In this document: positions 21,029 through 39,579 of the stretch, one piece after another | Layout of the letters: every line of letters begins with the position of its first letter | Numbering within the stretch: the stretch's first letter is position 1 | Assembly (NCBI RefSeq): GCF_006715045.1 | Contig: NZ_VFML01000001.1 | Location: 1,580,501-1,644,500 of the forward strand | Reading direction: 5' to 3' | Source of the DNA: Amycolatopsis cihanbeyliensis | GTDB taxonomy: Bacteria > Actinomycetota > Actinomycetes > Mycobacteriales > Pseudonocardiaceae | DNA length: 64,000 bases | The notes under the pieces: generated by a model | Seen by the model: the letters and a program-made list of their open reading frames with translations, nothing else | Database searches by the model: none | Told to the model about the DNA's origin: nothing | Position numbers and translations under genes: made by a program

Positions 21029-23197
21029 TCAGCCCACTCGGACGTCCGTCGCGTGGTCGCGGGTCTCCGCCTGGTCGGTGTCGTCGACGCCGACCAGGTT
21101 CTGGGTGGCCTGCGCGAACGCCAGGAAGTGGGAGAGCGGTCCATCGTGGGTCAGGTGGAGTTCGTGCATGGCTCTGGTGCAGGCGATGTAGAGCATGGAC
21201 CTGTCCATGTCGGTGGCGTAGTTGTCCTCGTCCACCCGCGGGACGATCACGGTGTCGAACTCCAGCCCCTTGGCGATGTGTGCCGAGGTGATGATGATGC
21301 CGCCGGCGAACGAGGTGCTGTCGTAGTCGAGGAAGGTCAGCTCGACACCGGCCCCGGACAGGGCGTGGGTGAGCGTTGTCGCCTGGTCGACGGTTTTGCA
21401 GATGATGCCGAGGGAACGGCGGTCGCTGTGCTCGTGCTGCTTGATGAGGGTCAGAATCCGCGCCTGCTGGTCCCGCCGGTCGGTGCAGGCGATGACCTGG
21501 GGTGGCGGCCCGTGGCGCTCGATCGGGACGAGCTTGTCGTTGCGGGAGATGTTCTGGGCGAACTCGGTGATCTCGCTGGTGGAGCGGTAGCTCTTGCACA
21601 GCTCCAGGCAGTCGGCTTGCGGGAAGATGCTGTGGATGGTGGCCAGGGAGGATGAGCTGAATGGGTTCACCGACTGGTTGGCGTCACCCAGGATCGTCAT
21701 CGTGCAGGAGAAGAGCTCGCGCAGCACCGCGTACTGGATGGGCGTGTAGTCCTGCATCTCGTCGACCAGCAGGTGCCGGATGTGGCCGTAGCTCTCCTGC
21801 CGGGACGTTCTGATCATGGTGTAGATCAGCGGAAACACATCCGCGTACTCGATCTTCTTCCGCCCGAGTGGCTGGAACAGGCCGCGCCGGGCCGGATCGG
21901 CGGTGTAGAACGCCCGGTAGATGGCGAACGCGTCCTTGTAGGGGAACATGGCGCGGACCTGCTTGCGGATGCTGGCGGTGTCGGCGGCGGCCCACGTGCC
22001 ACCCTTGTCCAGCACCTCGTGTTTGAGCTTGTGCACAGCGGCATTGGCGACGCGGTCGAGCCGGGTGAAGACCGGAAGGGTCGGCGACTCGTGGAAGAGG
22101 TCGGCCACCCAGTCCGCCGAGAGCCGTTTGTGCTTGCGTTCGATGTCTGCTGGTGTGAACTCCTCGTGCGGGCGGGAGGTGATCCAGTCCTCGAGGCGGG
22201 CGACGAACTCGGGCGTGGCCTTGTAGCGCATGCGTGCGGCCGCCGCGTCGTCGACCTGGTCGAGCAGCGTGACCACCTGCTCGCTGAACGTCTCGTAGCC
22301 GGTGACCTTCGCCAGGAACCTGCCGGCGATCGTGTCGAAGTCGATCTCCGCGACTTGCTCCTCACCCAACTCGGGAAGCACGTCGGCGATGTAGTCCCCG
22401 AACACCTTGTTCGGGGAGAGGATCATGACGTTGTCGGAGGAGAGGGTGTCCTTGAAGCGATACAGCAGGAACGCCACCCGGTGCAAGGCGATCGACGTCT
22501 TCCCCGACCCCGCCACACCCTGCAGGATCAGCACCCGTGCCGTCTCGTTGCGGATCACCGCGTTCTGCTCGCGCTGGATGGTCGCGACGATGTTCTTCAT
22601 CCGGTCGTCGGCGGACTGACCCAGCTCCCGCTGCAGCACCTCGTCGCCGATGTTGAGCGTGCTGTCGAACATGTACTCCAGGCGCCCACCCTGAATCTTG
22701 TACTGGCGCTTGCCGGTGATCTCGCCATGGGTGGTGCCCGCCGGGGTCTCGAAGAACGCCTCGCCCGACTCGAAGTCGTAGTAGAGGCTGGACACCGGAG
22801 CACGCCAGTCGTGGATCACGATCTCCTGCGTCTCGGGGTCCGAGAAGTTGTGCACACCGATGTAGTGAGCACCGGCCTCCGGATCGCCCGTGGGGCGGAA
22901 GTCTACCCGCCCGAAGTACGGCGACTCCAGCAACCGCTCGATCCGCTTGCGCAGCATCACCGCGTGCTCGGCCAGCCGCACCGACATGTCCACCTCGCCA
23001 CGGAAGTTGGCCTTCTCCGCGAAGTCCATGTCCCGCAGGTTGTCCCACAGGTGCTTCTTCCGCTCCTCGATGGTGCGCGCGGACTCGTCGATGTCACCGG
23101 TAAGACGCTCCAGCTCCGTGGCCAGCAGCCGCACCGTCTCGGCAAGGTACCGGCGCTCCCGCTCCTCGTCTCGCGTCTGCGCGTCCGTCAACGCCAC
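21029..23197 (-). CDS. helD: HelD-type RNA polymerase recycling ATPase
   Basis: 722 residues of UvrD/Rep-like SF1 type. An N-terminal coiled coil (about 10-60) is the arm that in HelD enters the RNAP secondary channel; Walker A GVAGSGKTS lies near residue 227, Walker B LLVDEMQDYTPIQY near 478, then GDANQSVNPF and TSAHIAKGLEFDTVIVPR. HelD proteins use ATP to pry stalled or inhibited RNA polymerase from DNA; the related HelR rescues RNAP from rifamycins. The ORF begins at GTG 23197, but TTG 23191 fits the GGGAGG ribosome site better. Controlled by the palindrome at 23220-23245, shared with a decayed divergent gene. Confidence 0.9.
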   Translation of the reverse strand: MALTDAQTRDEERERRYLAETVRLLATELERLTGDIDESARTIEERKKHLWDNLRDMDFAEKANFRGEVDMSVRLAEHAVMLRKRIERLLESPYFGRVDFRPTGDPEAGAHYIGVHNFSDPETQEIVIHDWRAPVSSLYYDFESGEAFFETPAGTTHGEITGKRQYKIQGGRLEYMFDSTLNIGDEVLQRELGQSADDRMKNIVATIQREQNAVIRNETARVLILQGVAGSGKTSIALHRVAFLLYRFKDTLSSDNVMILSPNKVFGDYIADVLPELGEEQVAEIDFDTIAGRFLAKVTGYETFSEQVVTLLDQVDDAAAARMRYKATPEFVARLEDWITSRPHEEFTPADIERKHKRLSADWVADLFHESPTLPVFTRLDRVANAAVHKLKHEVLDKGGTWAAADTASIRKQVRAMFPYKDAFAIYRAFYTADPARRGLFQPLGRKKIEYADVFPLIYTMIRTSRQESYGHIRHLLVDEMQDYTPIQYAVLRELFSCTMTILGDANQSVNPFSSSSLATIHSIFPQADCLELCKSYRSTSEITEFAQNISRNDKLVPIERHGPPPQVIACTDRRDQQARILTLIKQHEHSDRRSLGIICKTVDQATTLTHALSGAGVELTFLDYDSTSFAGGIIITSAHIAKGLEFDTVIVPRVDEDNYATDMDRSMLYIACTRAMHELHLTHDGPLSHFLAFAQATQNLVGVDDTDQAETRDHATDVRVG

Positions 23198-23219
23198 CTC
23201 CCGTTCAGCTTCCGTATGG

Positions 23220-23245
23220 AGCCTACTGTCACGTTAGAGTAGGGT
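23220..23245. promoter_or_regulatory. Regulon palindrome, site 1 (helD / divergent pseudogene)
   Basis: Core CTACTGTCACGTTAGAGTAG (23223-23242), centred on ACGT. Toward helD it gives a TAGGCT -10; toward the plus strand TAGAGT lies 5 nt before the ATG at 23246. Confidence 0.8.
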
Positions 23246-23723
23246 ATGGCCCCCTTCGACGCGGCGGTCCGCGGCAGCCGTAGGCTCGGACGACGAGTCA
23301 CGGTTCGCGGAACTCGACTGGCGCCGGACACCGATGGGAAACTGGTGCTGCGCCGCCGGTGGGATCCCGCCGTTCGCAAGGATACTGGCCAACCGTGACG
23401 TGCGCTCTCTCGTGGTCATCGACGCGCTCGGCGAAGTGATCGAGTGGCACGAGCGCGGGCTGATCCCCGCGAGAAGAACTCTGACCGCCGACCCACGCTG
23501 CTACCCGAGTCACACCGACTTCTACCAACCCGAGGGTCTGCGACGCCTCGCCGAACGGCTCCACTCAGCCGGCGTGTTCACCCTCTGGTTGAACGACCCA
23601 CCGGCCGACGAGTTCACCACCGCACTCACCCGGGCCTTCGCCACCGCGACCGCCGAGATCACCCGGTTCGACAACCCGTACCAGGAACGCGAGGCGACCG
23701 CGACCACCGCACCGACGCGGTAG
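23246..23723 (+). pseudogene. Decayed spermidine-synthase-like methyltransferase-fold gene
   Basis: Blocks of the spermidine-synthase-like family are spread over two frames: FAELDWRRTPMG (frame of 23334), then LVLRRRWDPAV in the frame of the ATG at 23246, then DVRSLVVIDALGEVIEWHERG with LTADPRC, then HTDFYQPEGLRRLAERLHSAGVF, PADEFTTAL and FDNPYQEREAT back in the first frame. The SAM/dcSAM-binding middle (the GGLGLG region) and the stretch after ADPRC are missing, so it has one frameshift and two deletions. The ATG 5 nt after site 1 is probably the old leaderless start. A 129-residue ORF from 23334 remains open but can hardly fold as an enzyme. Confidence 0.65.
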
Positions 23724-23740
23724 CCGGCACGGCGAGGCAC

Positions 23741-23980
23741 TCAGTCGCCGAACGGGATGTCCGGCAGGTGATCCCACAGGTCACGGACGTGCCGGTAGCC
23801 ACGATCGGGCAGCCGGTCAAGCACCGCGAGCAGCTCGGTGCGGGCCTCCTGCTGGATCGCGGCGTCGATGACCTCCTGCTTCGTCGCCGACGCGTCGGCG
23901 AAGGCGTGTTCGACGGCGTCGATGATCTCGATCCGGGTGACGCCGGATGTCTTCTGGTCTTCGATGTCTGCCACGACCAT
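23741..23980 (-). CDS. Small DUF2795-like protein A
   Basis: About 77-79 residues. Middle part TRIEIIDAVEHAFADASATKQ and end VLDRLPDRGYRHVRDLWDHLP match the helical DUF2795 pattern, and the protein is closely related to the gene at 36378 (same DAVE-AF, LDRLPDR and VRDLWDHLPD blocks). Start either ATG 23980 directly after site 2 or GTG 23974, six bases later; the latter fits the spacing of other leaderless genes here. Function unknown; a soluble small protein with no metal site or signal peptide. One of four paralogues in this island, all with the same operator. Confidence 0.8.
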   Translation of the reverse strand: MVVADIEDQKTSGVTRIEIIDAVEHAFADASATKQEVIDAAIQQEARTELLAVLDRLPDRGYRHVRDLWDHLPDIPFGD

Positions 23981-24006
23981 ACTCTACACTAACGTTAGAG
24001 TAGAGT
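23981..24006 (-). promoter_or_regulatory. Regulon palindrome, site 2
   Basis: Near-perfect palindrome: ACTCTAC-A-CT, centre AACGTT, AG-A-GTAGAGT. On the minus strand it ends in TAGAGT directly before ATG 23980 and 6 nt before GTG 23974. Confidence 0.85.
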
Positions 24007-24094: not shown

Positions 24095-24120
24095 ACTCTA
24101 CTCTCACGTTAGGGTAGCCT
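24095..24120 (+). promoter_or_regulatory. Regulon palindrome, site 3
   Basis: ACTCTACTCTC-ACGT-TAGGGTAGCCT. A TGACT element lies 17 bp before the TAGCCT -10; the gene's ATG follows 6 nt after the site. Confidence 0.85.
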
Positions 24121-24126
24121 TGACGG

Positions 24127-24417
24127 ATGGACAGCGTTGGGGAGAGTCGGCCAAGGCCGCTCACCGTGCACGAGTTGAGCGACCACATCGAGGACGCGTT
24201 TGTCTCCGCCGAGGTGGGTGTGGCCGACTTGCTGGATGCGGCGATTCGTAGCCACGCGAGGCCGGTGGTGTTCGCCGCGCTGAACCGGCTGCCGCAGCGG
24301 CGGTTCCACTCGGTGCTGGACGTGTTGAGCGAACTGCCGGAAGTGTCCGTGGACGTCAGTCACCCCGGCGGCTCGGTGGCACCCACGCCGCAGATCTCAC
24401 CCGGAGGCGGCGTCTGA
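24127..24417 (+). CDS. Small DUF2795-like protein B
   Basis: 96 residues; core LTVHELSDHIEDAFVSAEVGVADLLDAAIR followed in the family by HARPVVFAALNRLPQRRF and a VLDVLSELP end. It is the sister of the gene at 39304 (shared IEDAF, DLLDAAIRSHARP and AALNRLP blocks), with an added proline/glycine tail. ATG lies 6 nt after site 3, so the mRNA is likely leaderless. Its stop overlaps the next ATG by one base, hence coupled to the unknown protein at 24417. Confidence 0.8.
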   Translation: MDSVGESRPRPLTVHELSDHIEDAFVSAEVGVADLLDAAIRSHARPVVFAALNRLPQRRFHSVLDVLSELPEVSVDVSHPGGSVAPTPQISPGGGV

Positions 24418-25178
24418 TGGCCACCCGCCTCTTCGTGACCGCCTCCTACGTCCCGGCTCGTCACCGTCGCGGCGACCGCTCCCCGGTGGGGACTGCGGTG
24501 CGGGCCCTGCTCGAACACGCAGCGGCCGGCCATGGCGTACTCGGGACCGGCGTGGCGCCCGGCCGCATCGGTCTGGTGCGCGGGTTCGACCACGCGAGCC
24601 GCGCGGTGCGAGACGAACTGCGGGCGGCATCGACCAGTCACGGCTGGTCGATGCTGGACCTGCCGACGGTGCCGGGGTTCGGGACGATCCCGGTCGCCGA
24701 CGATATGCGCCTGGTGGTTGTGGCGCACCGTTCACTGGTCCCGGTAGCGGAACGCTGCGCCGCCTGCTGGGACTGCCACCTGCTCGATCCCGGCGCGGTC
24801 GGGACCGCCACGAGCTCATATGCCTTGCGGGACGCCCCGGCGTTGGCGGTGACGACGGCGGGCGGCGCGGGTGACAGCATCGCGTCCCGCTTCGAGCTGT
24901 CGGGCTCGGTCACCTGCCGCAGCGAGGGTCTACCGGACGTGGTCGCGTCGGCGGTCGCCGTTCAACCGAATGGCGCCGGACTCCTGCTCGAGCACCTGAC
25001 CGGCGGCCGGCGCGGCACAGTACGGATGGTCGACACCACACTCCGCCTCGACCTGCCCGAGCCGACCCGGGGCACGCTCGACGGCCACCCGCAACTGTTT
25101 CCCGCAGGTGAGTATGCGATCACGACCGGCACCCGCCGGGTTCGCCGGGTTGTCGCCGACCACGGTAATTTGACGTAA
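24417..25178 (+). CDS. Unknown protein, paralogue of the gene at 25886
   Basis: 253 residues, not recognised. Two parts can be seen: an N-terminal alpha/beta half with the hydrophobic strand MRLVVVAHRSLVPVAERCAAC, and a C-terminal half of about 80 residues (VAVQPNGAGLLLEHLTG...FPAGEYAI) that is shared with the gene at 25886 (ARPSSGGMLLGVT...LAPGHYWI). No signal peptide or membrane helix. Translationally coupled to DUF2795-like protein B (TGATG overlap, GGAGG ribosome site) and under site 3. No function is claimed. Confidence 0.75.
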   Translation: MATRLFVTASYVPARHRRGDRSPVGTAVRALLEHAAAGHGVLGTGVAPGRIGLVRGFDHASRAVRDELRAASTSHGWSMLDLPTVPGFGTIPVADDMRLVVVAHRSLVPVAERCAACWDCHLLDPGAVGTATSSYALRDAPALAVTTAGGAGDSIASRFELSGSVTCRSEGLPDVVASAVAVQPNGAGLLLEHLTGGRRGTVRMVDTTLRLDLPEPTRGTLDGHPQLFPAGEYAITTGTRRVRRVVADHGNLT

Positions 25179-25187
25179 CGGTAGTCT
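25162..25187 (+). promoter_or_regulatory. Regulon palindrome, site 4 (merR twin 1)
   Basis: Weaker copy: GGTAATTTG-ACGT-AACGGTAGTCT. It overlaps the end of the preceding gene and lies 60 bp upstream of the first MerR gene, suggesting autoregulation. Confidence 0.7.
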
Positions 25188-25246: not shown

Positions 25247-25669
25247 GTGGGTGAGCGGATGCAGATCGGCGAGGTGGCCGAGCGCACCGGCCTGTCGCTG
25301 CGCACGATCCGCTACTACGAGGAAGTCGGCCTGGTCGTGCCCAGCGCCCGCAGCCAGGGCGGCTTCCGGCTCTACACCGAGCCGGACCTCGACCGGCTGC
25401 AGTTGACGAAACGCATGAAACCGCTGGGTTTCCAGCTCGAAGAGATACGCGAGCTACTGACGATCCTGGCACCCACCGGAAACACGACCGAGGTCGAGGA
25501 CCCGGTCGGGCGGCTGGCCGAGTTCAGCGCCGCCGCCGAGCGGGCGTGCGACGACCTACGCGACAAGCTACACGCAGCCGAGGAGTTCGCCCTCATGCTG
25601 CGTACCCACAAGGCCGCCGCGGGACGGAAGAGCAAGCGCCAGGCAACCGCGGCCCGCCCCCGGCGCTGA
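25247..25669 (+). CDS. MerR-family regulator, twin 1
   Basis: 140 residues: MerR helix-turn-helix and wing (MQIGEVAERTGLSLRTIRYY, SQGGFRLYTEPDLDRL, KRMKPLGFQLEEI) then a dimerisation helix (AAAERACDDLRDKLHAAEEF) and a basic tail (GRKSKRQ). No cysteine metal site and no large ligand domain, so the inducer is unclear. GTG start after GAAAGGAA. Nearly identical over its DNA-binding domain to the regulator at 27380. Since MerR proteins bind palindromes between -35 and -10, this pair is the best candidate for the island's operator. Confidence 0.9.
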   Translation: MGERMQIGEVAERTGLSLRTIRYYEEVGLVVPSARSQGGFRLYTEPDLDRLQLTKRMKPLGFQLEEIRELLTILAPTGNTTEVEDPVGRLAEFSAAAERACDDLRDKLHAAEEFALMLRTHKAAAGRKSKRQATAARPRR

Positions 25670-25852: not shown

Positions 25853-25878
25853 ACTCTACCCTCACGTCACGGTAGAGT
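25853..25878 (+). promoter_or_regulatory. Regulon palindrome, site 5
   Basis: ACTCTACCCTC-ACGT-CACGGTAGAGT. TGACT lies 17 bp before TAGAGT; the gene's ATG is exactly 7 nt after the site. Confidence 0.9.
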
Positions 25879-25885: not shown

Positions 25886-26653
25886 ATGGATGTGGTCACC
25901 ACCGATCGTCAGGATCACGCTGTCCCATCCGATCGACTCGACCCGCTCCAGCAAGGACTTCTCGCGGCAGTCCGGATGCTGACGACCGGGTCCCGGCACC
26001 GCCATACCCCTGCTCCTCTGGTGCTGTCCCGCGGTGATGTCATCGCGGTGGTCGGCGACCCCGGCAGCGGGGACCTGCCTGGGGCACTGCGCGCCGTGGC
26101 GCGGGACACCGGTGCCACCCTGATCGACGTCCCGCCCGAGTCGGCCGCGACCGGTCACCAGAGGGTGGACCTGGTCGTCGCGGCTCATCACTCCATCGTC
26201 GCGCCGGCCTGCCACCTCGCGCTGGCCACGGGCACACCCGTCCTGCTGCCCGGCTGTCTCAACACCACCACCGCACCGCTGCGGCTGTGGCTCCGGCCCG
26301 AGCCCACTCTGGAACTCCGCGACGACCGGCAGAGCGAGCCGGTCCTGCACCACCTGCACCTGACCGGCGCGCTCGAACTCCCTTCCGCCGAACCCGAGGA
26401 CTCGGTAATCGAAGTCCTCGCCCGCCCCTCATCGGGCGGGATGCTGCTCGGTGTCACCGATGACCGGGGCAGCATCGCACGGTGGCACCACGGTGCGCAG
26501 TCGTTGCGCGCGCTGGAGCCCCTGCGGGTCACGATCGACGACAACACCCGCGTTCTCGCGCCGGGCCACTACTGGATCGCCCCGGCGTCCCCGCCGCTGT
26601 ACCGCCTGCATGCCGAACCGTTTCCCACCGGCGTAACAGGGCACCGCGCATGA
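25886..26653 (+). CDS. Unknown protein, paralogue of the gene at 24417
   Basis: 255 residues from the ATG 7 nt after site 5; an upstream in-frame ATG at 25736 would run through the operator and is rejected. N-terminal half: LSRGDVIAVVGDPGSGDLP and the strand DLVVAAHHSIVAPACHLAL, matching VVVAHRSLVPVAERCAA in the paralogue; C-terminal half with SSGGMLLGVTDDRGS and LAPGHYWIAP shared with it. No catalytic motif recognised. The two are alone in being paired inside this regulon, which hints at a heteromer or diversified pair. Confidence 0.75.
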   Translation: MDVVTTDRQDHAVPSDRLDPLQQGLLAAVRMLTTGSRHRHTPAPLVLSRGDVIAVVGDPGSGDLPGALRAVARDTGATLIDVPPESAATGHQRVDLVVAAHHSIVAPACHLALATGTPVLLPGCLNTTTAPLRLWLRPEPTLELRDDRQSEPVLHHLHLTGALELPSAEPEDSVIEVLARPSSGGMLLGVTDDRGSIARWHHGAQSLRALEPLRVTIDDNTRVLAPGHYWIAPASPPLYRLHAEPFPTGVTGHRA

Positions 26654-26748: not shown

Positions 26749-27177
26749 TCACCGATGCGGACCTGGATAAGCGGAAAGGGCGGCCAGCGCCACACGGACA
26801 TCCGAGAGCCGGGTCGGCCAATGTCCGGTGATGGCTTTCCAGGCGGCGTGCAGCGAGACGGACTCGGCGAGCACGAGGACCGGTGGCTGGCCCCAGTGCG
26901 TCGCGACGACCGTACCGAGGCGATCGGGCTCGGCCACCGTTGGCGCACCGCCGGGCAGGAAGTCGACGGTCAACGAGGCACCGCTGCCGGTGACATCGTC
27001 CTCGACCCCGGCCATCGCGGCGTGGTAGCCACGCAGGGCGTTGCGCCTGTGCGGCTCGGACGGCAGCGCGCAGGCAGGGTAGGCGGCATTGTAGGTCACC
27101 GCGGAGGCGAACCGCCGCGGAAGCTCGCCGACAGTCGTCTCGGACGGTCGCCGTGGATCGGTCTCGGGCTGGATCAC
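26749..27177 (-). CDS. Unknown 142-residue protein under site 6
   Basis: Not recognised. Soluble, with a central strand-helix segment (PPVLVLAESVSLHAAWKAITG) and no signal peptide. The start is a GTG located exactly 7 nt after the TAGAAT of site 6 on the minus strand, which strongly supports it as a real leaderless gene despite low similarity to anything I know. Convergent with the unknown gene at 25886. Confidence 0.7.
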   Translation of the reverse strand: MIQPETDPRRPSETTVGELPRRFASAVTYNAAYPACALPSEPHRRNALRGYHAAMAGVEDDVTGSGASLTVDFLPGGAPTVAEPDRLGTVVATHWGQPPVLVLAESVSLHAAWKAITGHWPTRLSDVRVALAALSAYPGPHR

Positions 27178-27184: not shown

Positions 27185-27210
27185 ATTCTACCTTAACGTA
27201 AGAGAAGGGT
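27185..27210 (-). promoter_or_regulatory. Regulon palindrome, site 6
   Basis: On the minus strand: ACCCTTCTCTT-ACGT-TAAGGTAGAAT, with TCAACC 17 bp before the TAGAAT -10 and GTG 7 nt after it. Confidence 0.85.
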
Positions 27211-27831: not shown

Positions 27832-28245
27832 TTACCGAGTCGTGGACGTGGTCCGGCTGGCGGACAGGATCCGCATATGGTCGGCGAGCTTCCGCAGCGC
27901 CGCGGCGAACTCCTCGGCGGCCGCGACGGCGGCGCGCAGCTCACCGCAGCGCCCCTCGGCCGCGGCCACGAGCTCGGCCAGCCAGGTGCCGTCGTCCTCC
28001 CCGACGACCGGCACCCCGGGCGGCAAGACGGCCAGCACGTCGCGCATCCGCGCCAGGTCGAATCCGAGGTGCTCCATTCGCCGGACGAGATGCAGGCGAA
28101 CCAGGTCCTGGCCGGTGTAGAGGTGGACATCACCCTGACCGCGAGCGCTGGCCCGGACCAAACCGTCCTGGGCATAACGGCGGATCGCGCGCAGCGACAG
28201 ACCTGTCCGGCGGGCCACCTCGCCGATCCGCATGTGCTCGCCCAC
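27832..28245 (-). CDS. MerR-family regulator, diverged third member
   Basis: MerR fold with the same layout (MRIGEVARRTGLSLRAIRRY, GDVHLYTGQDLVRL, RRMEHLGFDLARM) but a changed recognition helix and wing (RASARGQGDVH), so DNA or ligand preference may differ. C-terminal helix AAAEGRCGELRAAVAAAEEF aligns with twin 2. Start chosen at GTG 28245 by analogy with twin 1 (GTG-Gly-Glu-x-Met); GTG 28269 and ATG 28233 are alternatives. Read from site 7 on the minus strand, about 40 bp upstream. Confidence 0.85.
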   Translation of the reverse strand: MGEHMRIGEVARRTGLSLRAIRRYAQDGLVRASARGQGDVHLYTGQDLVRLHLVRRMEHLGFDLARMRDVLAVLPPGVPVVGEDDGTWLAELVAAAEGRCGELRAAVAAAEEFAAALRKLADHMRILSASRTTSTTR

Positions 28246-28285
28246 GTGACACCCCACTTCTCGCAGCACGTACGCTACCGGACTG

Positions 28286-28311
28286 ACACTACCCTCACGT
28301 CAAGGTAGAGT
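28286..28311. promoter_or_regulatory. Regulon palindrome, site 7
   Basis: ACACTACCCTC-ACGT-CAAGGTAGAGT. Plus strand: CTGACA, 17 bp, TAGAGT, the best -35/-10 pair of the set; minus strand: TAGTGT facing the third MerR gene. Confidence 0.85.
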
Positions 28312-28335: not shown

Positions 28336-28361
28336 CCGACACTCTCACGTAACGTAAGAGT
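28336..28361 (+). promoter_or_regulatory. Regulon palindrome, site 8 (RNase J)
   Basis: Variant with two overlapping ACGT centres: CCGACACTCTC-ACGT-AACGTAAGAGT, followed at once by the ATG of the RNase J gene, as in site 2. Confidence 0.75.
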
Positions 28362-32291: not shown

Positions 32292-33563
32292 GTGCCCACC
32301 GGCACCACCGCTACGCAACCGCCGGCTACCGGGGCCCCGGGGCGCGCGCACGTGCCCAGGGTGGTCGCGGCCGCCTCGGTGGCGCTGGCCCTGACCGCGC
32401 CCGGGCAGACGGCCGCGGTGTCGGTGTTCGTCGATCCGCTCATCCGTGATCTCGGCGTCTCCCGCTCCGCCGTGTCCACTGCCTACCTGATCGGGTCGCT
32501 GACCGGCGCGTTCGTCATGCCCGTGCTCGGCAGGCTGATCGACCGCTACGGCCCGCGCCGGGTGATGGCCACCATCGCGCTGTGCTTCGGCGCCGTCCTG
32601 ATGGTCTCGACCGCGGCTTCCGAGATCACCGGGCTGACCGCGGCGTTCATCGGCATCCGGGTCGGCGGCCAGGGCGCGCTCAACCTGGTCGCCACCACCA
32701 CGGTGGCGATCTACGTCCACCGGCGCCGGGGCTTCGCCACCGGGGTCGCCTCCGCGATCGGCACCGCCGGAATCTCGTTGACCCCGATGCTGCTGGAACG
32801 GCTGGTGTCGGACTGGGGGTGGCGCCAGGTCTGGATGATCGAGGGCCTCGCCGTCTGGGCACTGGTCATCCCCGCCGCCCTCCTACTGCTGCCCCGGCAC
32901 GCACCCGCACCACCCGCCGATGACGGCGACACCGAAGCCCCACGCGGCAGCGCGCTGCCGCCGGTGGACTGGACCCTCGGCCAAGCGGCGCGCACCGGCA
33001 TGTTCTGGGTCGTCACCGCCGGAGTCGCCGTGTGCGCACTGGTCACCACCGGCCTGAACTTCCACCAGGTCTCCCTACTCGGCGAACGCGGCCTCTCCCC
33101 CGCCGAAGCCGCCGCGACCTTCCTGCCCCAGACCATCGCCGGGCTGATCGCCACCTTCGGCCTCGGCTGGCTCGCCGACCGGTTCTCCGACCGGATGCTC
33201 ATCATCGTCACCATGGCCGTCCTCGCCCTGGCCACCGCCGGCGCGGGATGGCTCACCCCCGGCTTCACCGCCGTACTCTACGGCCTGGCCCTGGGCGCCT
33301 GCGGCAACGGCATCCGCACCCTGGAAGCCGTCGCCTTCCCCCGCTGCTTCGGCCTGCGCCACCTCGGCACCATCCGCGGCGTCGTGCACTCCGTCACCGT
33401 CGGCGCCTCCGCCTTCGGCCCCCTACTCCTCGCCCTCGGCCGCGAACACACCGCCAGCTACCAACCCATCCTCCTGGCCGCCACCGCGCTACCCCTCGTG
33501 GTCACTCTGGCCGGCGCCCTGGTCCGCACCCCGCCACCAACACCACCGCGCCACGATTCCTGA
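32292..33563 (+). CDS. MFS transporter
   Basis: 423 residues, twelve hydrophobic segments, motif A-like GRLIDRYGPRRVMA between helices 2 and 3 and its repeat GWLADRFSDRMLI in the second half. GTG start follows GGAAGGA; the open frame continues upstream without a ribosome site. Resembles monocarboxylate-porter-type or multidrug MFS exporters. Placed inside the island after site 10, so an efflux role alongside the rescue factors is plausible; substrate unknown. Confidence 0.85.
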   Translation: MPTGTTATQPPATGAPGRAHVPRVVAAASVALALTAPGQTAAVSVFVDPLIRDLGVSRSAVSTAYLIGSLTGAFVMPVLGRLIDRYGPRRVMATIALCFGAVLMVSTAASEITGLTAAFIGIRVGGQGALNLVATTTVAIYVHRRRGFATGVASAIGTAGISLTPMLLERLVSDWGWRQVWMIEGLAVWALVIPAALLLLPRHAPAPPADDGDTEAPRGSALPPVDWTLGQAARTGMFWVVTAGVAVCALVTTGLNFHQVSLLGERGLSPAEAAATFLPQTIAGLIATFGLGWLADRFSDRMLIIVTMAVLALATAGAGWLTPGFTAVLYGLALGACGNGIRTLEAVAFPRCFGLRHLGTIRGVVHSVTVGASAFGPLLLALGREHTASYQPILLAATALPLVVTLAGALVRTPPPTPPRHDS

Positions 33564-33592: not shown

Positions 33593-35188
33593 TCAGGCGC
33601 CTTCGGCCACGAGCGGTTCGAGCGCGAGTTCGGGGTTCTGGCGGAGCAGGATGCGCATCGTCATCTCGTCCTCGAACAACGCCAGCTCCGCGCCGTCGGT
33701 GCGGGTGAGGACCTCGCAGCGGCGGGCGCCGTCGACCACGCCCCGCTGCCCCGAGTCGGCGAGCCTGCGGACCGCGGTGTAGGGCAGCCGGTCCAGCTTG
33801 ACCGGGGACTTGAACTCGTGTTCCAGCCGGTGCGCGGCGACCTCGAACTGCATCGGCCCGACCGCGGCGAAAACCGGTACGGCGTCGCCGCGCAGGTCGG
33901 AACGCAGCACCTGCACCACGCCCTCGGACTCCAGCTGCTCGATGCCCTTGCGGAACTGCTTGGCCCGGCTCAGGTCCGCGGGCCGGGCGGTGGCGAAATG
34001 GGCGGGCGCGAAGCTGGGCAGGCCGGGGAAGCGCACGGCCGGCTTGTCCGTGTACAAGGTGTCGCCCACCCGCAGCGCGGAGGCGTTCACCAGGCCGATC
34101 ACGTCACCGGGATACGCCACCTCCACAGTGGAGCGCTGCTGACCGAACACCTGCTGCGCGTACTTGGTGGCGAACGGGCGCGCGGTGGAGGCGTTGGTCA
34201 CCACCATCCCCCGCTCGAACACCCCGGAACACACCCTGGCGAAGGCGACCTGGTCCCGGTGCGACGGATCCATTCCGGACTGCACCTTGAACACGAACGC
34301 GGAGAACGGGGCGTCCAACGCACGCGGACGCTCGTCCACATCCAACCGCGCCGACGGGCGCGGGGCCAGCTCGACCAGCAGATCCAGCAGGTGCCGCACG
34401 CCGAAGTTCAGCACCGCCGCACCGAACAGCACCGGCGTCGCCGTCCCCGCGAGGAACGCCGCGGCGTCGAACTCCCCGCCCGAGCCGACGGCCAGCTCCG
34501 ACTCCTCGTGCGCCCGGTGCCAGTCCACGCCCTCCTCGGCCTCGGCCCGGGTGGCGTCCATCCGCTCCTCCGGGGCGAGGGTGGCGCCACCGGCGGTGCG
34601 GGTGTAGCGCACGAACGAGCCATCGGCCAGATCCAGCACCCCGTGGAAGTCCCCCGCGATCCCCACCGGCCAGGTCAGCGGCATCGGCTGCAACCCGATC
34701 CGCTCCACCAGCTCGTCACACAGCTCCAGCGCCTCCCGGCCCGGCCGGTCCCACTTGTTGATGAACGTGATCACCGGGATCCCCCGGTACCGGCACACGT
34801 CGAACAACTTCAACGTCTGCGGCTCCAACCCCTTGGCCGCATCCAGCAACATCACCGCCGAATCCACCGCCGACAACACCCGGTAGGTGTCCTCGGAGAA
34901 ATCCGCGTGACCCGGCGTGTCCAACAGGTTGATCACCGCGTCACCATAGGCGAACTGCAACGCCGCCGAGGTGATCGAGATCCCCCTGCTGCGCTCCATC
35001 TCCAACCAGTCCGACACCACACCCCGCCGGCCCGACTTGCCGTGCACCGCACCCGCCTCGGAAATCACCTCGGCATGCAACGCCAACGCCTCGGTCAAGG
35101 TGGACTTACCGGCATCCGGATGACTGATCACCGCGAACGTACGCCGCCTGCCTGCCTCGGCCACGACGTCCGTGCTCTGCTGGGCCAT
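33593..35188 (-). CDS. prfC: Peptide chain release factor 3 (RF3)
   Basis: 531 residues. GTPase motifs: G1 SHPDAGKSTLTEAL, switch region with SDWLEMERSRGISITSAALQF, G3 LLDTPGHADFSEDTYR, G4 FINKWDRPGREA; followed by the beta-barrel and RF3 C-terminal domain. RF3 recycles RF1/RF2 and takes part in post-peptidyl-transfer quality control. ATG 9 nt after the TAGAGT of site 11 on the minus strand, with no ribosome site, so leaderless or nearly so. Ends 29 bp from the MFS gene, convergent. Confidence 0.94.
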   Translation of the reverse strand: MAQQSTDVVAEAGRRRTFAVISHPDAGKSTLTEALALHAEVISEAGAVHGKSGRRGVVSDWLEMERSRGISITSAALQFAYGDAVINLLDTPGHADFSEDTYRVLSAVDSAVMLLDAAKGLEPQTLKLFDVCRYRGIPVITFINKWDRPGREALELCDELVERIGLQPMPLTWPVGIAGDFHGVLDLADGSFVRYTRTAGGATLAPEERMDATRAEAEEGVDWHRAHEESELAVGSGGEFDAAAFLAGTATPVLFGAAVLNFGVRHLLDLLVELAPRPSARLDVDERPRALDAPFSAFVFKVQSGMDPSHRDQVAFARVCSGVFERGMVVTNASTARPFATKYAQQVFGQQRSTVEVAYPGDVIGLVNASALRVGDTLYTDKPAVRFPGLPSFAPAHFATARPADLSRAKQFRKGIEQLESEGVVQVLRSDLRGDAVPVFAAVGPMQFEVAAHRLEHEFKSPVKLDRLPYTAVRRLADSGQRGVVDGARRCEVLTRTDGAELALFEDEMTMRILLRQNPELALEPLVAEGA

Positions 35189-35197: not shown

Positions 35198-35223
35198 ACT
35201 CTACTCTCACGTCACAGTACGCT
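35198..35223 (-). promoter_or_regulatory. Regulon palindrome, site 11 (prfC)
   Basis: Read on the minus strand: AGCGTACTGTG-ACGT-GAGAGTAGAGT, ATG of prfC 9 nt further. One of two separate copies in the 100-bp prfC/draG gap. Confidence 0.85.
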
Positions 35224-35264: not shown

Positions 35265-35290
35265 ACCCTACCCTGACGTCAGGGTAGAGT
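35265..35290 (+). promoter_or_regulatory. Regulon palindrome, site 12 (leader ORF-draG)
   Basis: The closest copy to a perfect palindrome: ACCCTACCCTG-ACGT-CAGGGTAGAGT. TCGACC lies 17 bp before TAGAGT; the leader ORF's ATG is 7 nt after it. Confidence 0.9.
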
Positions 35291-35297: not shown

Positions 35298-35402
35298 ATG
35301 CTCGGCGAGGCACGGCTCGGCGCATCCGCGGCCAACGCGTCGCGTGCGCTGCCACCTCCGTGCTGCGTCTACCAGCCACCCCGGAACGGATCCCTACCAT
35401 GA
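35298..35402 (+). CDS. 34-codon leader ORF coupled to draG
   Basis: ATG exactly 7 nt after site 12, the same spacing as the real leaderless genes, opens a 34-codon frame whose TGA overlaps the ATG of the ADP-ribosylglycohydrolase gene (ATGA). The peptide has no family likeness; it begins MLGEARLGAS and has a proline-rich, two-cysteine segment (LPPPCCVYQPP). It is most likely a leader that a leaderless 70S initiation reads first and that hands ribosomes to draG, and it could sense elongation blocks at the triple proline. Too short for gene finders. Confidence 0.6.
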   Translation: MLGEARLGASAANASRALPPPCCVYQPPRNGSLP

Positions 35403-36367
35403 CCGCCGCCTTCGCCGCCGTCACCCACGACAAGGTCCTCGGACTCCTGCTCGGCGGCGCACTCGGCGACGCGCTCGGAGCCCCGTTCGAAGGGCGACCA
35501 TCGGTCGACGCCGCCGACCTTGCCGCGGAGGAGCGGGCGCCGAGCCGGCTGGTGCACACCGACGACACCGCACTCACCCTCGCCCTGGCCGAACACCTGG
35601 CCCAGCGACGCGACGCCGAACGGCTCGACGTCGACGCGCTCGCCCTGGAGTTCGCGCGGGCCTGGCGCGCCGAACCCTGGCGCGGCTACGGCTCCGGCAC
35701 ACCCCACGTGTTCGGCCTGATCAACGCCGGTGTGCCGTGGACCGAAGCCAGCCGGGCCACCTTCCAGGGCCAGGGCTCCTACGGCAACGGCGCGGCCATG
35801 CGCGTCGCCCCGGTCGCGCTCGTCGCCGACAGTCTGCACCACGCCGCGGAACTGGGCCAGCGCAGCGGCGAACCCACCCATTCCCACAAACACGGCCAGC
35901 ACGGCGCCGCCTGCCAGGCCGCCGCGGCCTACCTCGCCCTGCACAGCGACCCCGCCCACCCCCTGGACCGCACCCGGTTCCTCCAGGACCTCGCCCGGGC
36001 CGTGCGGTCGCGCCCCTGGCACGAGAAGTTCGACCGGGCCACCGAACTCACCCGCAACGGCGCCGGCCCCAAACACACTGCCCATGCCCTCGGCAACGAC
36101 GCCAGCGCCCTGGGCTCCGTCCCCACCGCACTGACCGCGTTCCTGACCCACCCCGACGACACCACGCAGACCATCCGCTACGCCATCCAGACCGGCGGAG
36201 ACGCAGACACCATCGCCGCCATGGCCGGAGCGCTCGCCGGAGCCCGCAACGGCGCCAGCACCCTCTCCCGCGGACTGATCTCCCGCCTCGAAGCCGCCGA
36301 CCAGCTCCATCACCTGGCCGACCAACTCGCCGGACACCCCCGCAACCCTACCGTCACGTCAGGGTAG
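35399..36367 (+). CDS. ADP-ribosylglycohydrolase (DraG/ARH type)
   Basis: 322 residues. The two dimetal-binding motifs are present: HTDDTALTLALAEHLA near residue 51 and GGDADTIAAMAGALAGA near residue 265, plus GSYGNGAAMRVAPVAL in the middle, diagnostic of this family. Such enzymes remove ADP-ribose from arginine, serine or other groups on proteins or nucleic acids. The ATG is set by the leader ORF's stop (ATGA); a TTG in frame at 35291 lies in the promoter spacing and is rejected. Its last codons overlap site 13. A decayed paralogue lies at window position 1. Confidence 0.92.
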   Translation: MTAAFAAVTHDKVLGLLLGGALGDALGAPFEGRPSVDAADLAAEERAPSRLVHTDDTALTLALAEHLAQRRDAERLDVDALALEFARAWRAEPWRGYGSGTPHVFGLINAGVPWTEASRATFQGQGSYGNGAAMRVAPVALVADSLHHAAELGQRSGEPTHSHKHGQHGAACQAAAAYLALHSDPAHPLDRTRFLQDLARAVRSRPWHEKFDRATELTRNGAGPKHTAHALGNDASALGSVPTALTAFLTHPDDTTQTIRYAIQTGGDADTIAAMAGALAGARNGASTLSRGLISRLEAADQLHHLADQLAGHPRNPTVTSG

Positions 36368-36370
36368 AGT
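36345..36370 (+). promoter_or_regulatory. Regulon palindrome, site 13
   Basis: ACCCTACCGTC-ACGT-CAGGGTAGAGT, overlapping the draG stop codon. The GTG of the small DUF2795-like gene is exactly 7 nt after it. Confidence 0.9.
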
Positions 36371-36377: not shown

Positions 36378-36605
36378 GTGACGGATACCAATACGAATCC
36401 AGCGGTCACCCGCAACGAGATCATCGACGCCGTCGAGGACGCCTTCCGCGACGGTTCGGCGACCACGCAGGAGATCCTCGACGCCGCCATCCGGTACGAG
36501 GCCCCTGCCGAACTGCAGGCCACGCTGCAACGCCTTCCGGACCGCACCTTCGGCCACGTTCGCGACCTGTGGGACCACCTTCCCGATGTCCCCATCGGCG
36601 ACTGA
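36378..36605 (+). CDS. Small DUF2795-like protein C
   Basis: 75 residues, GTG start 7 nt after site 13 with no ribosome site. RNEIIDAVEDAFRDGSATTQ and LQRLPDRTFGHVRDLWDHLP place it as the sister of protein A (23741). All helical, soluble, acidic; no known function. Followed after 54 bp by the arabinosyltransferase gene, with which it is probably cotranscribed since no separate operator intervenes. Confidence 0.82.
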   Translation: MTDTNTNPAVTRNEIIDAVEDAFRDGSATTQEILDAAIRYEAPAELQATLQRLPDRTFGHVRDLWDHLPDVPIGD

Positions 36606-36659: not shown

Positions 36660-39287
36660 ATGACGGACACAGCGACCGCGCCGCGTCCGGTGAGCGCGCC
36701 GGACCCCCCGGCACGCTCCCGTCGCGGCTTCCGCTGGTTGTTGGGGGCGGCGCTGGTCACGGCCGTGACGGCCATCGCGATTCCGTTCGCGCCGGTGGAG
36801 GCGGAACGGGTCGAGGTGAGCTGGCCGAAGGCGGGCCAGGCGGCCGAGTCGGCGGTGGCGATGTTCCTGCCCTACCGGCCACTGCGGTTGGACGTGACGG
36901 TGGCCTGCTCAGCGGTGGCCGGGACGTCACCCGGCCGGGACGTCACCGCGTTCGCGACGATTCCGCCGGACGCGGACATCGCCCGCGACTGGGGCCTTTC
37001 CCTTGTCGTGCGGGACCGGCAGCTCGTGCTTGTCGCCGACGGTACCGAGACGCCACTTGGAGCGCCCCCTGGCCCGGACTGCCGGTACCTGGTCCACGCC
37101 GAGGACGACGAGTTGGTCGTGCTGGTCGGCGACCGGGAACTGACCCGGCGGGCGATGCGGGTTCCACAGGTGACGGCCTTCGTCACCGACCTGCCCGCGG
37201 AGCAGGCCACCGGTGCGGTGTCCGCGGTGGCGCGAGCCGATGCCCGTTTCCAGACCTCGCCGAGCCCGCTGAAGCCGCTCCTGATGATCCTGTGCGGGCT
37301 CGGCGTGGTGGTCTGCGTCGTGCTGGCATTCCGCACCTTCCGCGGACCACCGCGACCAACCCGTCCGCTGGTGCGCCGCCGCGTGGACCTCGCCTGGACC
37401 GGCCTGGTCGCCGTCGGTATCGGCGCCTGGGGCGTGCTGGGCCCGCAGACCGTGGACGACGGCTGGTTCCTCGGCATGCACCGCAATTTCGGCCCGTCGG
37501 GGTTCGCAGGCGACTACTACATGGCGCTCAACGCGGCGGAGAATCCCGCGATCCTGCTGCAGCATCTGTTCGCTCCGTTGTTCGAGGTATCCTGGGCACC
37601 GCTGGTGGTGCGGCTACCCGCGATGGCAGCCGGATTCACGATGTGGGTGCTGCTGCTGGGCATCGTCCGCCTGCTGCACGAGCACACCACCGCGCCCCGC
37701 GTGCCGACCTGGCTACTGGCCGCCGCGTTCTTCGCGGCGTGGATGCCCAACGGCGTCGGTCTGCGGCCGGAGCCGTTCGTGGCGCTGTGCACGGCGATCA
37801 GTGCCTACGCCGCCGTCCGCGCCCGGCTTACCGAACGGCCCGCCTGGCTGGTCGTCGGTGGAGTCGCCACCGGCGTGTGCTTCGCGGTGACCTCCACCGG
37901 AATGCTCGCCCTCATCCCGCTCGCGCTTGGGCTCGTGCACTCCTGCCGTCACCTGCCCGCCACCCGTGACCGTATCGCGCTCGTGGCACTGGCCATGGCC
38001 GCGGTCGCGGTGGCCTCGCCGCTGGTGTTCCTCCAATCCGGCATCGGCGGTTTCCTGGACTCGACCGGCGCGCGCTACTGGTACGGCGCGGCACAGAGCT
38101 GGCACGGCGAGTTCAGCCGCTACCAGATGCTGCTCGGCGGTGTCGGCGACGACTTCGCCTTCGAACAGCACCCGGCCCGCCGCCTGCCCGTCCTGCTGGC
38201 CATCGCGCTGGTGCTCATCGCGCTGGTCCTGGCCCCGCGGCGCCAGCCAACGCATGCCTTCGCCGGGGCCTACGGATGGCCGTTCACCTGGTTCGGTCTC
38301 GGGCTCGCCGCGCTCGTCGTGACCCCCACCAAGATCGCCTCGCACTTCGCCGCGCTCGACTTCTTCACCGCCCTCGTTCTCGCCCTCGGGCTTGCCGCGC
38401 TGCCCCGCGCCTTCGCCCGCGAGAACGCCGGCTGGGCGATCCGGTTCAGCGCGCTGTTCCTCGTCGTCCTCGTGGCCAGCCTGAGCTGGGACGGACCGAA
38501 CTCGTGGTGGGGCTACCACCGCCTCGGCATGCCCGACCTCGACGAGCCACTGTTCGAAGGGACCCTGGCCAACCCACTGAACCTACTCGCCGCCGGGGCC
38601 GTGGCCGCCGCCGCGATCCTGTACTGGCAGCACCGGCGCGGAACCGGCCCCGAGGACCCGCAGCCGGTCGCGATCAGATGGGCCGGGTGGTCCGCCGTCG
38701 CCGTCGCCGGTCTGTCCCTGCTCGCCGTGCCGGTCCTCTCCGCAGGGGCGCTCGGCAAGGCCGCGCTCAACCAGCACGCCACCGGCTCGTGGTCACCACC
38801 GGCCACAAACCTCGCCTCGCTTACCGGCTCCACCTGCGGCGCCGCCGACCACGTCCGGCTCGACGACGGCACCACGCTGACCCAGCAAATGGCCCGCACG
38901 CCGGGCCCCGTCCTCGTCGACTGGCCGATCTCGTTCTGGTACCCCTGCGCTCGCCTTCCCGTGCTGGCCGACGGCCTCGTCGAGCCGCCCACCCTGATGG
39001 TCACCGCGCCCGGCCAACATGCCCACCACGGCCACCTTGCCCGGGACTACCGGCCGTTCGCAGGCGCCTTCGCCGCCATGCGCTCCGTCGTCACCTACCA
39101 CGAGATCCCCGCCCGCCTGACCGGAAACCCGGACCCCCGAGCCTGGGGCACCCTGCACGAAGTCCGCTACCGCTACCCCACCGACCGCATCGACGTACAG
39201 GTCTCGACCACCACCCAGAATGGCTGGCAACGCGGCCCCAGCTACGCCACCGCCGACTACATCGACAAACCCCCACCGAACCCGTAG
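36660..39287 (+). CDS. Arabinosyltransferase of the Emb family (GT53)
   Basis: 875 residues: an N-terminal membrane helix and an extracytoplasmic beta domain (about 45-200), then some twelve membrane helices with the catalytic aspartates in QTVDDGWFLGMHRNFG near 265, LRPEPFVALC near 375, TPTKIASHFAALDF near 555, and a C-terminal carbohydrate-binding-like domain (about 690-875). Emb proteins add arabinose from decaprenyl-phospho-arabinose to arabinogalactan or lipoarabinomannan and are the target of ethambutol. At 875 residues it is shorter than typical mycobacterial Emb proteins of about 1,050-1,100. It lies alone, not in an embCAB cluster, downstream of site 13 and protein C. Confidence 0.9.
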   Translation: MTDTATAPRPVSAPDPPARSRRGFRWLLGAALVTAVTAIAIPFAPVEAERVEVSWPKAGQAAESAVAMFLPYRPLRLDVTVACSAVAGTSPGRDVTAFATIPPDADIARDWGLSLVVRDRQLVLVADGTETPLGAPPGPDCRYLVHAEDDELVVLVGDRELTRRAMRVPQVTAFVTDLPAEQATGAVSAVARADARFQTSPSPLKPLLMILCGLGVVVCVVLAFRTFRGPPRPTRPLVRRRVDLAWTGLVAVGIGAWGVLGPQTVDDGWFLGMHRNFGPSGFAGDYYMALNAAENPAILLQHLFAPLFEVSWAPLVVRLPAMAAGFTMWVLLLGIVRLLHEHTTAPRVPTWLLAAAFFAAWMPNGVGLRPEPFVALCTAISAYAAVRARLTERPAWLVVGGVATGVCFAVTSTGMLALIPLALGLVHSCRHLPATRDRIALVALAMAAVAVASPLVFLQSGIGGFLDSTGARYWYGAAQSWHGEFSRYQMLLGGVGDDFAFEQHPARRLPVLLAIALVLIALVLAPRRQPTHAFAGAYGWPFTWFGLGLAALVVTPTKIASHFAALDFFTALVLALGLAALPRAFARENAGWAIRFSALFLVVLVASLSWDGPNSWWGYHRLGMPDLDEPLFEGTLANPLNLLAAGAVAAAAILYWQHRRGTGPEDPQPVAIRWAGWSAVAVAGLSLLAVPVLSAGALGKAALNQHATGSWSPPATNLASLTGSTCGAADHVRLDDGTTLTQQMARTPGPVLVDWPISFWYPCARLPVLADGLVEPPTLMVTAPGQHAHHGHLARDYRPFAGAFAAMRSVVTYHEIPARLTGNPDPRAWGTLHEVRYRYPTDRIDVQVSTTTQNGWQRGPSYATADYIDKPPPNP

Positions 39288-39303
39288 ACCAGTGGTACAC
39301 GGC

Positions 39304-39546
39304 CTAAGGGTTTACCGGGCCGTCCGGCAGATCCGGCAGCTCGCGAAGCACATCCGCCACCGACTCGAACCGGCGCGGGGGAAGGCGATTCAATGCCGCG
39401 AAGACCACCGGTCGTGCATGGCTGCGAATCGCGGCGTCCAGCAGGTCGACCACGGTCGGGGACACGGAGATGAAGGCGTCCTCGATGTGCTCGCGCAGCT
39501 CCCGCGCCGTCAGCGGGGTGGTCTGGTTCGGTCCGGCCGCGTCCAC
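39304..39546 (-). CDS. Small DUF2795-like protein D
   Basis: 80 residues. TARELREHIEDAFISVSPT, DLLDAAIRSHARPVVFAALN and a VADVLRELPDLP end make it the sister of protein B (24127). GTG start lies exactly 7 nt after the TAAGAT of site 14, without a ribosome site. Convergent with the arabinosyltransferase, 16 bp apart. Confidence 0.82.
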   Translation of the reverse strand: MDAAGPNQTTPLTARELREHIEDAFISVSPTVVDLLDAAIRSHARPVVFAALNRLPPRRFESVADVLRELPDLPDGPVNP

Positions 39547-39553
39547 CCGGAGA

Positions 39554-39579
39554 ATCTTACCCTAACGTGAGGGTAGACT
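39554..39579 (-). promoter_or_regulatory. Regulon palindrome, site 14
   Basis: On the minus strand: AGTCTACCCTC-ACGT-TAGGGTAAGAT, with TAAGAT as -10 and GTG 7 nt on. This is the rightmost copy; none was found in the remaining 24 kb. Confidence 0.88.

What the first reader, a model, noticed from the sequence alone, without database searches (positions are those of the whole stretch)
21029..39579. Fourteen copies of one ACGT-centred palindrome define a previously unnamed regulon
Within 16.4 kb (23220-39579) I find 14 near-identical 26-bp sites: left half ACTCTACCCT, ACGT centre, right half AGGGTAGAGT (a 15th, degenerate, lies at 19772). Each lies directly upstream of a gene or divergent pair, and none was noticed in the flanking 19 kb or 24 kb. 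The arms often match exactly while the surrounding coding sequences do not, so selection on the site, not duplication alone, is at work. Such a density of one operator across functionally unrelated genes looks like a single coordinated system.
Basis: partly seen in the sequence, partly recalled or inferred. Interest (0 to 1): 0.95.

Follow-up and report, generated by a model that had tools for sequence, protein, structure and literature searches.

The report
Mobile MerR regulon for stalled machines
In a soil actinobacterium 15 copies of one 26-letter palindrome stand before genes, and in related chromosomes and plasmids the same palindrome lies near genes for one MerR-type regulator, which is therefore predicted to switch these genes together: an anion transporter and proteins that likely free stalled RNA polymerases and ribosomes.

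Summary
Fourteen ACGT-centred palindromes lie at 23220-39579 (12 match the consensus at 18 or more of 24 positions, 2 at 16); nothing outside the island scores above 14 in the window. The "degenerate" 15th site (19772) belongs too: it lies before a SulP anion permease, the commonest target in relatives. In the whole genome 18 of 20 hits (up to 3 mismatches; backwards control 5) fall at three loci, each with a close MerR paralogue. Of 80 named loci fetched by MerR protein alone, 75 carry the site; so do 16 of 16 plasmid loci read, of 33 found. In 80 genomes of the genus a strict site occurs in 5, all among the 13 with this MerR. The MerR is very probably the binder. The gene-facing arm carries a TAnnnT box, no -35 box is found, and several targets start 7-9 bases later (predicted leaderless), unlike published MerR promoters. 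Recurrent targets: SulP, RF3, RNase J, HelD, MFS, DUF2795, ADP-ribosylglycohydrolase. I read it as a mobile regulon, probably for stress that stalls RNA polymerase and ribosomes. Ligand and sign are unknown. Nine paper searches gave no description.

The parts
19772..19797 (-). operator, 17/24; before the SulP permease gene
   Evidence: present in the second copy (L016 15778) and in G013 (L152 11778)
18014..19543 (-). SulP/SLC26-family anion permease (509 aa), commonest target of the regulon
   Evidence: Pfam Sulfate_transp 2.9e-46; closest solved chain 5da0 E=1.2e-153
23220..23245 (-). operator 18/24 before HelD
21029..23197 (-). HelD RNA-polymerase recycling motor
   Evidence: NCBIfam HelD_BACSU 529 bits, cut-off 419
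23981..24006 (.). operator 22/24; before the 23741-23974 gene
23741..23974 (-). DUF2795 protein; predicted leaderless GTG start, offset 7
   Evidence: (scanned from 23980)
24095..24120 (+). operator 21/24 before the DUF2795-orf253 pair
24127..24417 (+). DUF2795 protein; predicted leaderless ATG, offset 7
24417..25178 (+). orf253, uncharacterised, overlaps the gene before it
   Evidence: no Pfam, NCBIfam or PADLOC match; 10 proteins listed incl. itself
25162..25187 (+). operator 16/24 before MerR1
25259..25669 (+). MerR1, predicted binder of the sites
   Evidence: Pfam MerR_1 7.3e-20 (scanned from 25247); linkage
25853..25878 (+). operator 23/24 before orf255
25886..26653 (+). orf255, 27% identical to orf253 over 183 columns; predicted leaderless ATG, offset 8
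27185..27210 (.). operator 19/24 between orf142 and MerR2
26749..27177 (-). orf142, uncharacterised; predicted leaderless GTG, offset 8
   Evidence: relatives beside sites in L045, L089, L090
27380..27775 (+). MerR2
   Evidence: scanned from 27236
28286..28311 (.). operator 22/24 between MerR3 and RNase J
27832..28269 (-). MerR3, diverged paralogue
28341..28361 (+). short operator variant abutting the RNase J start
   Evidence: a close variant stands before RNase J on Brevibacterium pAP13 (L168 2662)
28362..30050 (+). RNase J; a 60% identical second gene lies on contig C2
   Evidence: TIGR00649 472 bits, cut-off 400
30069..30094 (+). operator 21/24 before ABC-F
30187..31815 (+). ABC-F ATPase
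   Evidence: ribo_prot_ABC_F 359 bits, under the cut-off 380; PoxtA nearest solved chain
31815..31840 (+). operator 21/24 before MFS
32292..33563 (+). MFS transporter; best NCBIfam matches (below cut-off) are L-lactate and oxalate/formate types
   Evidence: scanned from 32085; start by eye
35198..35223 (-). operator 18/24 before RF3
33593..35188 (-). peptide chain release factor 3
   Evidence: prfC 500.5 bits, cut-off 467
35265..35290 (+). operator 23/24 before ARH
35298..35402 (+). 34-codon leader ORF, offset 8 from the site, overlapping the ARH start
   Evidence: also in G013 (L151)
35399..36367 (+). ADP-ribosylglycohydrolase family protein
   Evidence: PF03747 1.2e-54 (scanned from 35291)
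36345..36370 (+). operator 22/24 before DUF2795-Emb
36378..36605 (+). DUF2795 protein; predicted leaderless GTG, offset 8
36660..39287 (+). EmbC-like arabinosyltransferase; 82% copy in island 2, 29% relative elsewhere
39554..39579 (-). operator 20/24
39304..39546 (-). DUF2795 protein; predicted leaderless GTG, offset 8

Best explanation
The 15 palindromes are very probably the operators of one MerR subfamily encoded among them, and this regulator is predicted to switch on together an anion permease and proteins that likely clear stalled RNA polymerases and ribosomes. Shown by sequence: the site tracks this MerR in chromosomes and on plasmids; its gene-facing arm holds a TAnnnT box; no -35 box is found; several targets begin 7-9 bases downstream. 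Inferred: the arm is the -10 element, transcription starts at or near the start codon of those genes, and MerR bound over it controls promoter opening on binding a small ligand, perhaps an anion (SulP and MFS are the transporters under control, and the effector half keeps several arginines). Inferred from the named families: HelD and RNase J act on stalled transcription complexes, RF3 and ABC-F on ribosomes. The minimal unit is probably SulP plus MerR; longer versions added the rescue genes and probably spread with plasmids.
For: Site-MerR linkage: 75 of 80 loci fetched by MerR sequence alone hold a site of 17/24 or better; reversed motif 2 of 80 loci, ten arm-permuted palindromes 0-8 loci each. 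Genus: strict site in 5 of 13 genomes with the MerR (38 hits), 0 of 67 without; backwards control 10 single hits in 10 genomes (Fisher 5.4e-5). Plasmids: 16 of 16 loci read, of 33 records, carry it, best scores 19-24. All five close MerR paralogues of this genome lie at one of its three site loci. Labelled genes beside 141 sites: SulP 54, MerR 39, RF3 26, HelD 10, DUF2795 9, ARH 8, RNase J 2 among others. Brevibacterium pAP13 has SulP, MFS, RNase J, RF3, DUF2795, MerR and HelD in about 10.3 kb with four sites. Promoter: TAnnnT in the proximal arm 69 of 86, distal 29 of 86, only-proximal 44 against only-distal 4; in-frame start at offset 7-9 in 17 of 22 DUF2795/orf255/orf142 genes. RF3 is accessory: strong RF3 matches (E below 1e-30) in 11 of 80 genomes, and in the 6 that also have the MerR all 8 RF3 genes lie within about 6 kb of it. 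Thirteen island genes compared with the sister genome: dN/dS 0.05-0.73.
Against: No binding or expression data. 5 of 80 MerR loci have no site within the DNA held. Most loci lack the rescue genes: RF3 is in 33, RNase J 14, HelD 10, ABC-F 2 and Emb 0 of 80 loci, and RF3 in 4 of 16 plasmid loci read, so 'rescue' is not the shared function; SulP itself is labelled in 57 of 80. HelD sites show no arm bias (3 against 3 of 8). The dyad sits over the predicted -10 box rather than between -35 and -10, which could mean repression. In M. tuberculosis loss, not gain, of RNase J raises drug tolerance (PMC9312406, abstract). 5 genomes of the genus have RF3 without this MerR. Emb, ARH and DUF2795 do not obviously fit a rescue theme.
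Confidence: 0.6

Rival explanations
1. An anion-homeostasis regulon: MerR senses an anion carried by SulP, and the other genes are protective extras for that same ion (fluoride, chromate, arsenate or a carboxylate).
For: SulP in 57 of 80 loci and in all 16 plasmid stretches read; CrcB fluoride channels follow SulP-MerR on pFRL5 and pGKT1, chrA and ars genes nearby on two; SulP closest to 5da0; effector-half arginines.
Against: CrcB beside it in only 2 of 16 plasmid loci and no site of 16/24 or better near crcB on either; does not explain RF3, RNase J or HelD unless that ion stalls them; two of the three arginine columns are also common in distant MerRs.
Confidence: 0.3
2. An antibiotic-resistance regulon parallel to WhiB7: the signal is a drug that blocks RNAP or ribosomes.
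For: HelD, ABC-F, MFS and Emb-like targets; nearest solved ABC-F is PoxtA.
Against: ABC-F in 2 of 80 and Emb in 0 of 80 loci; HelD scores as the B. subtilis type and far below the HelR cut-offs; the MerR is short (136 aa), without a large drug-binding domain.
Confidence: 0.2
3. MerR is a plain repressor and the set is derepressed; same regulon, opposite sign.
For: The operator covers the predicted -10 box and no -35 is found; the published spacing for MerR activators (centre 7-8 bp from -35, PMC5045206 passages) is not met.
Against: A weak promoter without a -35 box also suits an activator.
Confidence: 0.4
4. The genes serve the plasmid or mobile element (counter-defence), not stress.
For: 16 of 33 plasmid records are typed mobilizable and 2 conjugative; ADP-ribosylglycohydrolase could undo toxins (inference).
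Against: 8 of 10 island proteins have no PADLOC match; HelD hits UvrD-type models and ABC-F hits ATPase models, best mad3 of MADS at 170 bits, which I read as shared ATPase domains; the 80 loci are not known to be plasmids.
Confidence: 0.08
5. The repeats are a dispersed mobile repeat without regulatory role.
For: 15 copies in 20 kb.
Against: Copies sit before genes across actinobacterial orders, track one regulator, and differ at 11 of 390 positions between sister genomes.
Confidence: 0.01

Closest known systems
MerR-family metal/drug regulators (CueR, ZntR, TipA)
   Same: MerR_1 domain; palindromic operator; gene beside its target; best solved chains are CueR
   Different: 26-bp dyad with ACGT centre placed over a predicted -10 box, no -35 found; many scattered target operons; no cysteine pair, one partly conserved Cys (69 of 87)
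WhiB7/WblC regulon of actinobacteria (recalled)
   Same: as recalled, co-regulates HelR-type, ABC-F and MFS genes in actinomycetes
   Different: site tracks a MerR, not a WhiB (WhiB not searched); recurrent targets are SulP, RF3, RNase J, DUF2795; carried on plasmids
SLC26Dg (5da0), SulP family
   Same: long sequence match, residues 34-502 of 509, E=1.2e-153
   Different: here behind a MerR-linked operator; substrate untested

Membership tests
MerR family (regulator) | MerR_1 winged helix domain at the N-terminus | tested here: met
   three window proteins, 7.3e-20, 5.2e-17, 2.8e-13
MerR family (regulator) | binds a palindrome near its own gene | tested here: inconclusive
   linkage of site and gene very strong; binding itself not testable here
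Classical MerR activator promoter | 19-20 bp spacer, site centre 7-8 bp from -35 | tested here: not met
   TTGACA of 4/6 or better in at most 9% of 86 oriented sites at any hexamer start from -20 to 7; -10-like box in the arm, 7 bp from the centre
Metal-sensing MerR | conserved metal-binding cysteine pair | tested here: not met
   a single Cys column, 69 of 87
WhiB7-type regulon | controlled by a WhiB-family protein | not tested
   no WhiB search was made; the site tracks a MerR instead
WhiB7-type regulon | induction by ribosome-targeting drugs | not testable with these tools
   needs expression data
Anti-phage defence system | specific PADLOC model match | tested here: not met
   8 of 10 island proteins have no match; HelD matches UvrD-type models (best 60 bits); ABC-F matches ATPase models (best mad3, 170 bits), read as shared ATPase domains

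The most novel reading that the evidence does not exclude
A plasmid-spread MerR regulon senses a small anion and meets it with an anion transporter plus a kit that clears stalled RNA polymerases (HelD, RNase J) and ribosomes (RF3, ABC-F), firing leaderless genes from a MerR promoter whose operator is itself the -10 box: a new promoter geometry for MerR and a horizontally acquired rescue response in a genus most of whose genomes lack RF3.
Probability: 0.3. Interest if true: 0.85.

Novelty: new variant of a known kind. Interest (0 to 1): 0.72.

Why it matters
It links RF3, RNase J, HelD, a SulP transporter and DUF2795 into one transferable set with a readable operator, so its members can be looked for in any actinobacterial genome by motif. 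It also offers a MerR promoter geometry that does not fit the published spacer layout and is open to direct test, and it gives DUF2795 and the orf253/orf255 family a regulatory context.

Tried and rejected
I first took the duplicated 18014-19543 gene for an IS transposase, because a 1.8-kb stretch is 99% identical in island 2; its label in my scripts stayed "Tnp509". Pfam shows a SulP permease, so the reading "19772 is an IS end" was dropped; my first notebook entry still carries it.

A search with ACTCTACCNTACGTANGGTAGAGT gave nothing because my spacing was wrong; the finding's spacing was then used.

Rfam gave no match at gathering score in 17000-42000 nor in L155 and L159, so no catalogued riboswitch explains the leaders or the pFRL5 crcB. 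ARAGORN found no tRNA in the window.

A defence-system reading was tested with PADLOC and not supported.

Paper searches listed no paper that I could recognise as describing this regulon; only listings were seen, apart from PMC5045206 (passages), PMC8655204 (passages) and PMC9312406 (outline with abstract). Preprints and most subscription papers are not held. The title on RNase J1 resolving stalled transcription complexes was seen only in the reference list of PMC8655204.

Caveats on counts: gene starts in fetched chromosomal loci come from my own simple gene finder; targets were labelled by BLASTP to window proteins, so 26 unlabelled neighbours are not analysed. The 86 oriented sites are those with labelled genes on one side only. 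One search kept the best 80 of 315 relatives. In one search, 17 of 26 genomes reached through loci matched an 18-base core with up to 1 mismatch (backwards control: hits in 6 of 26); of the 9 others, 8 have a weaker site in their locus and L106 has none. In one search, genomes with more than 52 candidates had only 52 scored, so a missed MerR is possible. The distant-MerR control loci are only about 3.2 kb each; two of the 14 have a place of 16/24. dN/dS was computed for 13 genes; HelD, ABC-F, ARH and others were not included.
Full report
What was checked. The window is G000:C1:1580501-1644500 of a 7.4-Mb, two-contig genome. The nearest relative holding the island, G013, is probably Amycolatopsis aidingensis: a homologue under that name lies on a contig of the same length, 7,657,695 (inference). 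The 14 sites are real, and nothing outside 19700-39600 in the window scores above 14 of 24. The 15th, at 19772, is not a stray: it lies before a SulP permease gene, has a copy with its gene in island 2 (99% over 1.8 kb), and has a counterpart in G013.

Whole genome. With up to 3 mismatches in a 20-base core there are 20 places, against 5 for the backwards control; 18 of the 20 fall at three loci: the window island (13), island 2 at 196-204 kb (4), and 2.875 Mb (1). With up to 1 mismatch there are 13, against 0 for the control. A search with MerR1 gave 19 matches; the five strongest (55% identity or more) are three in the window, one in island 2 and one 2 kb from the 2.875-Mb site. Island 2 holds HelD (89% of 695 residues), MerR, Emb (81%), DUF2795, an ARH fragment, MFS (97.5%) and SulP (99.8%), so part of the repertoire is duplicated.

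Who binds it. Loci were fetched by MerR1 protein sequence only (best 80 of 315). Of these, 75 hold a site scoring 17 or more. Controls: reversed motif 2 loci, ten arm-permuted palindromes 0 to 8 loci; 14 short loci around distant MerR genes of the same genome hold none at 17, two at 16. Within the genus, 80 genomes were searched twice: MerR (E to 1e-20) in 13; a strict 17-base site in 5 (38 hits), all 5 among the 13; the backwards control gave 10 single hits in 10 genomes (Fisher 5.4e-5). Eight genomes with the MerR thus lack the strict form. On plasmids 33 records carry the MerR; I read 16 and all 16 hold a site with best score 19 to 24 and a SulP gene. I take the MerR as the binder with about 0.9 confidence; binding itself is untested.

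What it controls. Beside 141 sites in the 80 loci the labelled genes are SulP 54, MerR 39, RF3 26, HelD 10, DUF2795 9, ARH 8, MFS, orf129 and orf255 4 each, orf142 3, RNase J 2; 26 neighbours are unlabelled and 7 sites have no gene start in range. Present anywhere in the 80 loci: SulP 57, RF3 33, MFS 15, RNase J 14, orf129 14, ARH 13, DUF2795 11, HelD 10, orf253 5, orf142 5, orf255 4, ABC-F 2, Emb 0. ABC-F and Emb are thus probably local additions. Compact versions exist on plasmids: Brevibacterium pAP13 (SulP, MFS, RNase J, RF3, DUF2795, MerR, HelD 58%; four sites, about 10.3 kb) and Cellulosimicrobium (DUF2795, MerR, RF3, MFS, SulP, RNase J; two sites). RF3 is in 4 of the 16 plasmid stretches, RNase J and DUF2795 in 2. 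A close form of the short variant before RNase J in the window (28341) stands before RNase J on pAP13.

RF3 and RNase J. RNase J has a second gene on contig C2, 60% identical. RF3 has no housekeeping twin here: both full-length genes (89% alike) lie at regulon loci, and only 11 of 80 genomes of the genus have a strong RF3_C match (E below 1e-30; one more just reaches the curated cut-off at 2e-9; all 80 have weak matches). In the 6 of these 11 that have the MerR, all 8 RF3 genes lie within about 6 kb of it; 5 other genomes have RF3 without this MerR (Fisher 0.0017).

Promoter anatomy. In 86 sites with labelled genes on one side, the gene-facing arm matches the consensus better than the far arm in 47 and worse in 17; TAnnnT stands in the near arm of 69 and the far arm of 29. 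HelD sites show no such bias (3 against 3 of 8). No -35 hexamer is found at any offset tested. For DUF2795, orf255 and orf142 genes with a site within 200 bases, 19 of 22 have an in-frame start 6-9 bases after the site, 17 of 22 at 7-9. Over all 320 site sides, open ATG/GTG starts peak at offset 8 (22; other offsets from 1 to 40 give 2-16). This predicts leaderless messages with the operator arm as -10 box. Published MerR activators bind 7-8 bp from a -35 box with a 19-20 bp spacer (PMC5045206, passages); this set does not, so the sign of control is open.

Function. HelD recycles RNA polymerase (PMC8655204, passages); [quoted passage not shown] RF3 and ABC-F act on ribosomes (general knowledge). 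Hence the stall-clearing reading. Against it, loss of RNase J raises drug tolerance in M. tuberculosis (PMC9312406, abstract). The commonest partner is SulP, closest in sequence to 5da0, which I recall as the fumarate carrier SLC26Dg. MFS resembles lactate/oxalate transporters below cut-offs, and the MerR effector half keeps Arg85 (78 of 87), Arg96 (71; MerR1 itself has Ala) and Arg101 (83), although arginine is also common at the last two in distant MerRs. An anion ligand is a guess on this basis. CrcB genes beside SulP-MerR on two of 16 plasmids make fluoride one candidate; no site lies near them.

Selection. Between the two sister genomes the 15 sites differ at 11 of 390 positions (2.8%), against 60-base flanks of 82-100% identity in 29 of 30 cases (one 46%); many flanks are coding and the difference is modest. 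Thirteen island genes show dN/dS below 1 (0.05-0.73).

Verdict. Sign, ligand and purpose remain to be tested.

Noticed in passing
35298-35402: 34-codon leader ORF at offset 8 from the operator, its stop overlapping the ARH start (ATGA); also present in G013. Possible attenuator or coupling.
   Followed up: partly
31841-32291: About 450 bases between the operator and the MFS start with no gene that I could call; no Rfam match at gathering score.
   Followed up: partly
23334-23723: orf129 looks like a shortened form of a ~240-aa protein labelled in 14 of the 80 loci, by eye a spermidine-synthase/methyltransferase type.
   Followed up: no
9-224: Matches (77%) the ARH-like fragment of island 2 (L016 13886-14102).
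   Followed up: no
27832-28269: MerR3 differs at several positions of the DNA-binding half that are nearly invariant in the other aligned MerRs.
   Followed up: no
L159 8815-10018; L164 7724-8574: CrcB-family genes shortly downstream of SulP-MerR on two plasmids of different orders.
   Followed up: partly
L016 5076-6254: Tryptophan dimethylallyltransferase-like gene beside island 2.
   Followed up: no
G103, G094, G022, G032, G122: Five genomes of the genus have a strong RF3 match without this MerR; their context was not read.
   Followed up: no
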